Assembly (NCBI RefSeq): GCF_035917995.1
Contig: NZ_CP109131.1
Span: 5,332,001 to 5,396,000, forward strand
Source: Streptosporangium sp. NBC_01755
Lineage (GTDB): Bacteria > Actinomycetota > Actinomycetes > Streptosporangiales > Streptosporangiaceae
DNA length: 64,000 nucleotides
Direction: 5' to 3'
Below, one piece after another: positions 1,544 through 61,753 of the stretch. Within the stretch, counting starts at the first letter, position 1; each line of letters begins with the position of its first letter. A program made the position numbers and the translations under genes. Below the pieces are notes generated by a model that was not told the DNA's origin, made no database searches, and worked only from the letters and a program-made list of their open reading frames with translations.

Positions 1544-6601
<5,058 letters not shown>

Positions 6602-6729
6602 AAAGCAACATGCTTGATCTGTGCAGCGCTCTGTCCCTTCGCCGGGTCCGGAGCAGCGCCAGATCAAGGTCTTGCCCGCGTCCACTATGCAATTCTGAAA
6701 CAGCAAACAGTGTTTGTGTGTTTCATAGA

Positions 6730-6849
6730 GTTACGGCGGTTATGGCGAAGGGGAAACACCCGGTTACATTCCGAACCCGGAAGTTAAGCTCTTCAGCGCC
6801 GATGGTACTGCACCGGGGACGGTGTGGGAGAGTAGGTCGCCGCCGGACA
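6730..6849 (+). rRNA. rrf: 5S ribosomal RNA
   Basis: A 120-nt segment carries the standard 5S core, including CCGAACCCGGAAGTTAAG and GGGAGAGTAGGTCGCCGCC. It lies about 130 bp after the 23S gene, giving the canonical 16S-23S-5S order. Confidence 0.95.
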
Positions 6850-60166: not shown

Positions 60167-60334
60167 CGTGGGGTTCGCCTCCGTCGGGCGGCTCCTTTTC
60201 TGGAACCTCTGCCATGAACGACGCTCGAAAGGCGGCAGAGGTTGTCGGAGTTCTTCCGCGGGCTCCGGCGACACGGGCGTCACGCCCTCCACCATGCCCC
60301 GATGGTCTTGACGCGGCCTCGGGTTGAGAATAAT

Positions 60335-60360
60335 TTTCATCCAGATGATGGTTGATGAAA
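60335..60360. promoter_or_regulatory. inverted repeat before rpiR-type gene
   Basis: TTTCATC (60335-60341) and GATGAAA (60354-60360) form perfect 7-bp arms with a 12-nt gap, overlapping TAATTT (60331-60336), a possible -10. Likely an autoregulatory site. Confidence 0.5.
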
Positions 60361-60369
60361 GGAATGCTT

Positions 60370-61260
60370 GTGGCCGCAGGTGCGCTCGGACGTATCCAGA
60401 CCGAGACACCCGCGCTGCCGGAGGCGCTGCGCCGGGTGGGTGAGGCGATCCTGGCCGACCCCGCGGAGGCGGCGCGATCCACGATCATCACGCTGGCCGA
60501 GCGGAGCGGCAGCTCGCCCGCCACGGTCACCCGTTTCTGCAGGGTGTTCGGTTTCATGGGATATGCCGGGCTACGGGTCGCGCTGGCCACCGAGACCGGC
60601 CGCGCGGCGCAGGCCAACTGGGACATGGGGGTGGGCCACGAGATCGGCCCCACCGACCCGCTCGACGCGGCGATCGGCATGATGGCCGCCGCCGACTCGC
60701 GGCTCATCCAGGAGACCGCGGCCCAACTCGACGCGACCACCGTCGCCAAGGTCGCCGAGGCCATCGTCGCGGCCCGCCGCATCCTCATCTTCGGGGTCTC
60801 CACCAGCGGGGCGGTGGCCGGGATGATGGGCGGGCGGTTGCGCCGCATCCGGATCCCCTGCTGGAGCCACGCCGACGCGCACGAGGCGCTCGCCGACGCC
60901 GCGCTGCTCGGTGCGGGCGACGTCGCCATCGGCATCTCCCACCAGGGCCGCACCCGCGAGGTGCTGGAGTCCCTCGGCGAGGCCGGAGACCGGGGCGCGC
61001 TGACCGTCGCGGTCACCTCCTTCGCCCGTTCCCCGCTGGCGGAGCTGGCGGAGCTGGTGCTGACCACCGCCAGCCGCGAGACCACCTTCCGGCTGGGCGG
61101 CCTGGCCGCCGTCCACTCCCAGCTCTTCGTCCTCGACACCGTCTATGTCGCGGTCGCGCAGCGCACCTACGAGCAGACGAACGAGGCGTTCGAGCTGACG
61201 ATTGGTGAAGGTCCCCGCGCGGGGGACCTCGCAGACCTGTCACCGGTGCGGCCATCGTGA
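60370..61260 (+). CDS. MurR/RpiR-family regulator with altered C-terminus
   Basis: 296 residues from GTG 60370 (GAAAGGA 7 nt upstream). HTH_6 domain at about 10-80 (LAERSGSSPATVTRFCRVFG), then a SIS sugar-phosphate domain at about 115-250 (FGVSTSGAVAGMMGGRL, GAGDVAIGISHQGRTREVL). The family senses phosphosugars such as MurNAc-6-P. After AQRTYEQTNEAFELT the normal end is replaced: the last about 20 codons (IGEGPRAGDLADLSPVRPS) lie over a TnpB remnant in another frame. The essential domains are intact, so it may still work. Confidence 0.85.
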   Translation: MAAGALGRIQTETPALPEALRRVGEAILADPAEAARSTIITLAERSGSSPATVTRFCRVFGFMGYAGLRVALATETGRAAQANWDMGVGHEIGPTDPLDAAIGMMAAADSRLIQETAAQLDATTVAKVAEAIVAARRILIFGVSTSGAVAGMMGGRLRRIRIPCWSHADAHEALADAALLGAGDVAIGISHQGRTREVLESLGEAGDRGALTVAVTSFARSPLAELAELVLTTASRETTFRLGGLAAVHSQLFVLDTVYVAVAQRTYEQTNEAFELTIGEGPRAGDLADLSPVRPS

Positions 61261-61438
61261 CCTGGCGGCCCGGGAGGGGATACGGTACGTCTGCGCCAAC
61301 CCCGCGTGCGGTTGGGGCGGGCATGCCGACACCAACGCCGCGATCAATATCAAGAACGCCGTCGGAACGCCGGTATCAGGACGTGGAGACCTCGGGGTTA
61401 CCCGGTCTGCGAAGCGTCAACCCCCGCGCGCCGCTTAA
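61202..61438 (+). pseudogene. TnpB (IS200/IS605 OrfB) C-terminal remnant
   Basis: 78 codons with no proper 5' end. They contain the TnpB zinc ribbon and last RuvC residue: SQTCHRCGHRD, CANPACGWGGHADTNAAINI. The rest of the about 400-residue RNA-guided nuclease is missing. The remnant overlaps the 3' end of the RpiR gene in another frame and is followed by an IS605-type right-end hairpin, so the element's right end is preserved in place. Confidence 0.85.
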
Positions 61439-61458
61439 CCGCGACGCGACGGGAGAGT

Positions 61459-61487
61459 CTCCGGCCTTCGGGCCGGGGAGGAGTTCA
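61459..61487 (+). mobile_element. IS200/IS605 right end with omegaRNA-like 3' hairpin
   Basis: CTCCGGCC-TTCG-GGCCGGGG (61459-61478) forms an 8-bp hairpin, then AGGAGTTCAA. This layout, hairpin plus short single-stranded TTCAA, marks the right terminus of many actinobacterial IS605-group elements and the scaffold end of TnpB guide RNAs. Bases after about 61487 would be the guide. No left end is visible because the 5' part is deleted. Confidence 0.65.
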
Positions 61488-61753
61488 AACGCTCTTCCAG
61501 AGCCAGATCCAGAAGGGCCTCACCGCGGGCGCCCTCACGTAGCGCCCGCCGGGGGCCGGTACCGGCCCATGCCGCCCCCGATCGGCGTCGTCGACGCTCT
61601 CGGACGACGAGAGCCGTGGTCAGCCACATGAGTCGGCCACATGAGAACGTGGGCTCCCGAGCTCATGCCCGTATTCCATCCGGGAGATTGCGAACGGGCC
61701 GACGGTCACCGTGGAGGTCCGGAGGGAGATCGGCGGTGCGGGTGGAACGCGGG

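What the first reader, a model, noticed from the sequence alone, without database searches (positions are those of the whole stretch)
61202..61487. TnpB zinc ribbon and IS605 right end with guide-RNA-like terminus capping an RpiR gene
The element's left side is deleted, but the zinc ribbon and the hairpin-TTCAA end remain. The remnant now supplies the last about 20 codons of a MurR/RpiR regulator in another frame. The bases following 61487 would be the guide of the guide RNA, recording the ancestral insertion site or a repurposed target. A transcript from the regulator's promoter could contain this scaffold.
Basis: partly seen in the sequence, partly recalled or inferred. Interest (0 to 1): 0.55.

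Follow-up and report, generated by a model that had tools for sequence, protein, structure and literature searches.

The report
IS605 remnant fused to sugar regulator
A selfish DNA element once landed in a sugar-uptake gene of a soil bacterium, a later deletion removed the uptake genes and part of the element, and what is left caps a regulator gene and still carries a complete-looking guide-RNA scaffold whose guide points at the lost gene; it is an instructive fossil of a known kind, with no sign so far of a new function.

Summary
Window 61203-61488 is the 3' 286 bp of an IS200/IS605-type element: the TnpB zinc ribbon plus the right end, closing in TTCAA at 61488. It is 94% identical to an element elsewhere in the same genome (Streptosporangium sp.) with an uninterrupted TnpB frame. 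Its last 111 nt match a guide-RNA-like scaffold with strong covariation in the family. Relatives let the history be read to the base: the element sat in the last codons of an ABC sugar permease (site uninterrupted in 10 of 10 relatives where it could be read). A deletion from rpiR into tnpB removed about 4.1 kb (sugar isomerase, ngcE-type binding protein, two permeases) and replaced 11 conserved RpiR residues by 18 read out of frame. The 18-nt 'guide' is permease sequence. In the own genome it has no other site with 0 or 1 mismatch, and none of the 17 sites with 2-3 mismatches has TCTAC; 3 of 10 relatives keep TCTAC plus all 18 bases. Best reading: a decaying remnant, possibly co-transcribed, able in principle to load TnpB in trans, without demonstrated function.

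The parts
60308..60369 (+). Promoter-like region of rpiR: TTGACG (60308-60313), 17 bases, TAATTT (60331-60336); it would drive any transcript through the remnant
   Evidence: Block AATAATTTTCA is identical in all 11 rows aligned (own and 10 relatives; L066 was not put in); the -35/-10 reading is mine, by eye, not a tool result
60370..61260 (+). MurR/RpiR-family regulator, 296 aa as read from the GTG at 60370 (the true start is not known); HTH_6 and SIS domains kept; last 18 codons come from tnpB read out of frame
   Evidence: Pfam HTH_6 and SIS; 86-97% identical over residues 2-278 to 11 same-genus orthologues, all 11 ending in R(A/V)LESHRVER(N/S)
61202..61203 (.). Deletion junction rpiR|tnpB, no microhomology seen
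   Evidence: Own GACGAT|TGGTGAAGG; S. amethystogenes GACGATCCGGGC; intact element CAGGTGGTGAAGG
61203..61438 (+). 3' part of tnpB in the frame of 61202: zinc ribbon and C-terminus, stop TAA
   Evidence: PF07282 E 1.2e-13; 94% DNA identity to the full-length copy
61378..61488 (+). Guide-RNA-like (omega/reRNA) scaffold, overlapping the tnpB 3' end and the right end; ends in TTCAA. The 5' edge is my choice for the model
   Evidence: Covariance model 141.1 bits; 25 of 31 pairs with changes on both sides over 36 sequences
61489..61506 (+). Position of the guide: old flank of the element, the start of the surviving permease fragment
   Evidence: Same or nearly the same 18 bases in the uninterrupted permease of 10 relatives (0 mismatches in 3, 1 in 7); a guide of about 16 nt from the flank in ISDra2 per PMC8612924 passages
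61489..61543 (+). Last codons (TLFQSQIQKGLTAGALT and stop) of an ABC sugar permease (BPD_transp_1; nearest NCBIfam GlcU/UgpE/MalG, all under their cut-offs) whose remainder is deleted
   Evidence: 85-96% DNA identity over 52-66 bases to the permease 3' end in 10 relatives; families on the S. amethystogenes copy

Best explanation
An IS605-type element (tnpB, and in several sister copies a divergently read tnpA-like frame) inserted 3' of TCTAC in the last codons of the second permease gene of an rpiR-isomerase-ngcE-permease-permease gene row. A later deletion without visible microhomology joined rpiR codon 278 (counted from the GTG at 60370) to the zinc-ribbon part of tnpB and removed about 4.1 kb of that row plus the element's left part. 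What remains is an RpiR with a foreign tail and without its neighbours, a dead tnpB fragment and a structurally complete guide-RNA-like scaffold with the permease 3' end as its guide. Shown: the anatomy, the insertion site, the deletion and the conserved RNA structure of the family. Inferred: the order of events, and that the scaffold is a TnpB guide RNA (from its position and from ISDra2). Most likely it now does nothing. It may be transcribed from the rpiR promoter and could load the intact TnpB in trans, but no good target with the motif was found in the own genome.
For:: in 10 of 10 relatives where the site was in reach (L066 was not), the sequence after 61488 continues an uninterrupted permease; 7 of 10 have TCTAC just before it; 11 of 11 have the native RpiR tail; of 15 copies examined, 12 had a readable left end, preceded by TCTAC in 9, GCTAC in 2, neither in 1 (read by eye); matching full-length copies in the same genome; scaffold model and covariation; what was lost (sugar isomerase family, NgcE by TIGR03851 at 665.6 bits over a cut-off of 399.65, two permeases); only 67-74% similar stretches at 1.62 Mb and four short weak ones remain elsewhere in the genome; on the own rpiR branch 9 non-synonymous to 6 synonymous changes, on the sister branch 1 to 9 (Fisher two-sided p 0.018).
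Against: No relative with the insertion but without the deletion was seen among the 10 read, so the order of events is inferred. The sign of relaxed constraint on rpiR is weak: small counts, one outgroup, and the pairwise dN/dS of own against L060 (0.246) is no higher than that of another close pair, L062 against L063 (0.245), although own against L061 (0.155) exceeds L060 against L061 (0.068). The rpiR frame is open, so a working regulator is not excluded. The remnant keeps the scaffold hairpins in its own fold, so decay and use cannot be told apart in so young a copy. A single assembly was read; the junction was not checked on reads.
Confidence: 0.85

Rival explanations
1. The remnant is an active trans-acting guide-RNA gene: transcribed with rpiR, processed by the intact TnpB of the same genome, it cuts incoming DNA that carries the uninterrupted permease and so protects the deletion allele from being replaced.
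For: Uninterrupted TnpB frame with 94% identical right end; complete scaffold; promoter-like region conserved; TCTAC plus all 18 bases in 3 of 10 relatives; in ISDra2, TnpB and reRNA made from separate plasmids formed an active complex (PMC8612924 passages).
Against: No expression data. No target with TCTAC was found in the own genome among 17 other sites with up to 3 mismatches, so nothing there would keep the guide under selection. No independent sign of constraint on this copy.
Confidence: 0.06
2. The new C-terminus leaves RpiR working, or gives it a changed but useful function, for example on the paralogous ngc-like genes at 1.62 Mb or on other genes.
For: Frame open, HTH and SIS domains kept; paralogous genes present; pairwise dN/dS to the nearest relative is like that of another close pair (0.246 and 0.245).
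Against: The lost tail R(A/V)LESHRVER(N/S) is kept in 11 of 11 orthologues; 9 non-synonymous changes on the own branch against 1 on the sister branch.
Confidence: 0.1
3. The remnant and the deletion arose in one step, for example an aberrant one-ended insertion, and not by insertion followed by deletion.
For: No intermediate was seen among the 10 relatives whose site was read.
Against: The right junction is that of an ordinary insertion 3' of TCTAC; the left junction GACGAT|TGGTG shows no TCTAC and no element end.
Confidence: 0.08

Closest known systems
IS200/IS605 elements with TnpB and right-end guide RNA (ISDra2, Karvelis et al. 2021, PMC8612924; passages seen)
   Same: RNA that matches the 3' end of tnpB and the right end, with its last 16 nt or so from the flanking DNA; the motif needed for cutting equals the sequence 5' of the insertion
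   Different: Target motif here TCTAC (ISDra2 TTGAT); this copy lacks its left end, tnpA and most of tnpB, so it can neither make TnpB nor be expected to move; RNA and cutting were not tested here
TnpB as a retention device and gene drive in plasmids (Mears et al. 2025 preprint, PMC11870625; passages seen)
   Same: A guide that records the insertion site directs cutting of copies without the insertion
   Different: Here the favoured allele would be a deletion, the guide would come from a remnant and the nuclease from another copy; none of this was shown
Stand-alone (trans) omega RNAs, reported for IscB by Altae-Tran et al. 2021 (recalled, not read here)
   Same: Scaffold without a nuclease gene beside it while a matching nuclease is elsewhere in the genome
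   Different: IscB, not TnpB; no expression known here
TldR, RNA-guided repressors derived from TnpB (start of the abstract of PMC13418256 in a search listing; the rest recalled)
   Same: Precedent for host or phage use of TnpB-type guide RNA
   Different: TldR keeps a full-length nuclease-dead protein next to its guide (recalled); here the protein is gone and no new target was found

Membership tests
IS200/IS605 (IS605-type) element | Right end with constant last bases and unrelated flanks | tested here: met
   Of 23 rows printed (L090 and L071 are the same place; L098 and L100 are matches of 30 bases with one shared flank), 22 end in TTCAA or GTCAA and 1 (L097) does not; matches that did not reach the end of the query were dropped by the script and are not in this count
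IS200/IS605 (IS605-type) element | Insertion 3' of a fixed short target without target duplication | tested here: met
   Uninterrupted site GTCTAC|ACG in relatives, own right flank starts at ACG; of 15 copies 12 had a readable left end: TCTAC in 9, GCTAC in 2, neither in 1. The left flank of this copy itself is deleted
IS200/IS605 (IS605-type) element | tnpA of the HUH type and a left end in this copy | tested here: not met
   Absent from this copy, which begins inside tnpB; a divergent tnpA-like frame (HVHLL motif, by eye) in sisters such as L072, L123, L126
TnpB guide RNA (omega RNA / reRNA) | Conserved structured RNA overlapping the tnpB 3' end and the right end | tested here: met
   36 sequences, 95.2% of cells paired, 25 of 31 pairs changed on both sides, 0 of 500 shuffles as high (alignment fitted to the model). 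The 17 genus copies alone gave 1 of 43 predicted pairs. Own fold of the remnant z -1.72, 13 of 200 shuffles as good
TnpB guide RNA (omega RNA / reRNA) | Transcribed, processed and bound by TnpB | not testable with these tools
   No RNA data at hand
Functional TnpB nuclease at this locus | RuvC part and full length | tested here: not met
   Only profile positions 20-60 of 60 of the zinc-ribbon domain remain
MurR/RpiR regulator | HTH_6 plus SIS domain | tested here: met
   HTH_6 E 2e-14, SIS E 1.2e-18
TldR-type exapted TnpB | Full-length nuclease-dead TnpB beside a guide against a conserved genomic target (definition recalled) | tested here: not met
   No full-length TnpB at the locus; no site in the own genome with the motif TCTAC and up to 3 mismatches

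The most novel reading that the evidence does not exclude
A deletion allele that guards itself: the right-end remnant is expressed from the rpiR promoter as an orphan guide RNA, loads the TnpB made by another copy, and cuts any incoming chromosome segment or plasmid that carries the uninterrupted permease (TCTAC plus all 18 guide bases in 3 of 10 relatives), so that loss of a nutrient-uptake gene row is locked in or even spread by repair from the deleted copy.
Probability: 0.05. Interest if true: 0.7.

Novelty: new member of a known kind. Interest (0 to 1): 0.27.

Why it matters
It is a clean, base-resolved example of how an IS605 insertion can end: a gene row lost, its regulator capped by a foreign tail, and a guide-RNA scaffold left behind whose guide is a record of the deleted gene. 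Orphan scaffolds with a compatible TnpB elsewhere in the genome are the natural place to ask whether TnpB guides act in trans in nature. Taken alone it is an ordinary remnant.

Tried and rejected
Rfam on the whole window at gathering score gave only rRNA, so the scaffold reaches no curated family at that threshold. Covariation on the 17 same-genus copies alone was uninformative (1 of 43 predicted pairs changed on both sides); the family-wide set gave the signal. Single-sequence folding is weak evidence (z -1.72 for the remnant, -0.66 for L071).

Targets in the own genome: besides itself one site with 2 and 16 with 3 mismatches, 18 in all, against 28 for the reversed control pattern, so no excess. 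None of the 17 is preceded by TCTAC. The paralogous permease at 1.62 Mb has TCTAC but 4 mismatches in 18, three of them at guide positions 2-4 (counted by eye on the alignment), so I reject it as a likely target. A weak DNA match between the S. amethystogenes gene row and the scaffold region of another TnpB was followed up: no scaffold there. The model search of the 11 relatives' loci gave one weak match (L064, 24 bits, E 0.001), which I did not follow.

Literature: 0 papers held all of TnpB, right end, guide RNA, remnant, 0 held Streptosporangium and TnpB, 1 unrelated review held TnpB, reRNA, orphan. Searches gave 30, 74, 235 and 4 papers, of which I saw only the listed ones as listings. I saw passages of PMC8612924, PMC11870625, PMC10278001 and PMC12558985; no paper was read whole. 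The library holds open papers only, so this does not show absence from print.

Full report
What is there. The window lies in an 8.15-Mb single-contig genome. The nearest named relative by the regulator is Streptosporangium amethystogenes (97%; records of the own genome may be left out there), so I call it Streptosporangium sp. At 61203-61488 there are 286 bases that are 94% identical to the 3' end of an IS605-type element at G000:C1 7.155-7.157 Mb, and 61205-61488 are 95% identical to another at 6.928 Mb. The frame from 61202 gives the TnpB zinc ribbon, PF07282 E 1.2e-13, profile positions 20-60 of 60. The genome holds 22 matches to that family, one of them this remnant.

The other copies. L071 has a 464-aa open frame with TnpB homology over residues 57-438 (NCBIfam guided_TnpB 197.2 bits, cut-off 100; PDB chain 8bf8, TnpB, E 5.6e-22). 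L072 is full length but its tnpB is split by a one-base gap. L073, L074 and L075 keep only the right end and pieces. All five stop like the remnant in ...AGGAGTTCAA (remnant). The family-wide model search counts 8 scaffold matches in the own genome.

The old site. Of 16 genus genomes (own included), 12 (own included) have the regulator at 86% identity or more. I fetched the 11 others. In 11 of 11 the protein ends R(A/V)LESHRVER(N/S). In 10 of 10 where the far end was in reach (not L066), the bases that follow the remnant in the window are the 3' end of an uninterrupted permease. 7 of 10 have TCTAC just before it; 3 of 10 agree with the window in all 18 following bases, the other 7 in 17 of 18; the 3 exact ones all have TCTAC. 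The stretch between, about 4.1 kb in S. amethystogenes, reads as a sugar isomerase-domain protein, an NgcE-type binding protein (TIGR03851, 665.6 bits, cut-off 399.65) and two permeases. It is absent here. The best matches elsewhere in the own genome are two stretches, 74% and 67% identical, at 1.62 Mb, and four short ones.

Target motif. Of 15 copies examined (L071, L072 and 13 fetched), 12 had a left end that could be read: 9 are preceded by TCTAC, 2 (L122, L127) by GCTAC and 1 (L128) by neither; 3 had none (read by eye, the start extrapolated in several). L122 and L127 end in GTCAA, not TTCAA; so does L128, which does not fit a simple rule. The uninterrupted permease site has TCTAC just where expected. 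So this was an ordinary insertion.

The deletion. The window reads GACGAT|TGGTGAAGG; S. amethystogenes reads GACGATCCGGGC and the intact element CAGGTGGTGAAGG. I see no shared bases at the junction. Eleven residues of RpiR were replaced by eighteen (GEGPRAGDLADLSPVRPS) read outside the TnpB frame.

The scaffold. The last 111 bases of 17 genus copies were aligned and modelled. Within the genus, the tnpB 3' part of the scaffold (mean pairwise identity 0.944) is more alike than the tnpB stretch before it (0.865); the last hairpin is at 0.889 (the first 14 of 17 rows). A family-wide search found matches in 56 of 120 genomes. I aligned 36 matches from 36 sources: the window, L071, L072, L080, L081, L082, L092, L102 and the 28 loci L133-L160 (L132, the place of L072, left out; most matches have no locus). 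95.2% of cells pair, 25 of 31 pairs change on both sides, 0 of 500 shuffles reach this, and sliding the partners by 1-3 columns drops pairing to 36-49%. The alignment was fitted to the model, which favours the structure; in a separate MAFFT alignment the part with the first three helices lines up almost without gaps. This is what a TnpB guide-RNA scaffold should look like; the name rests on position and on ISDra2 (PMC8612924, passages), not on RNA data.

The guide. The 18 bases after 61488 were searched in the own genome with up to 3 mismatches: 18 sites, of which itself, one with 2 mismatches and 16 with 3; the reversed control gave 28. None of the 17 others is preceded by TCTAC. So there is no sign of a repurposed target.

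Is anything selected? On rpiR (277 codons), with L061 as outgroup, the own branch has 9 non-synonymous and 6 synonymous changes, the S. amethystogenes branch 1 and 9 (Fisher two-sided p 0.018). This fits a regulator released from its job, but it is weak: the pairwise dN/dS of own to S. amethystogenes (0.246) equals that of another close pair, L062 and L063 (0.245). Upstream, TTGACG, 17 bases and TAATTT (by eye) overlap a block that is identical in all 11 rows aligned, so a transcript through the scaffold is possible.

Verdict. A decayed IS605 insertion with a deletion, read to the base. The trans-guide idea is open and testable, and I give its boldest form about 5%.

Noticed in passing
L073 2243-2297 and L074 1775-1831 (minus): Two other right ends of the own genome share a 55-base stretch just upstream of the scaffold that matched no other place among the loci fetched here at E 1e-3; their homology to the remnant begins about 3 bases before the 5' edge I chose for the model, as if the scaffold were attached to different upstream sequence.
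   Followed up: partly
L074 turned, 3120-3590: A frame runs through a right-end remnant into a Pro/Thr-rich linker and a tail that looks like a carbohydrate-binding module (by eye), another candidate host-IS fusion.
   Followed up: no
L072 2651 and L079 1501: What looks like the same insertion (right flank GAGGAGTGG(G)ACATGGCGCA) is shared by the own genome and G013, perhaps an old copy.
   Followed up: no
L122, L127, L128 versus L071, L118 and others: Two copies ending in GTCAA sit after GCTAC, while nine ending in TTCAA sit after TCTAC, as if the first base of the target changed with the right end; a third GTCAA copy (L128) fits neither, its left end being uncertain.
   Followed up: partly
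window 1544-6848: rRNA genes 16S, 23S and 5S in a row at the start of the window.
   Followed up: no
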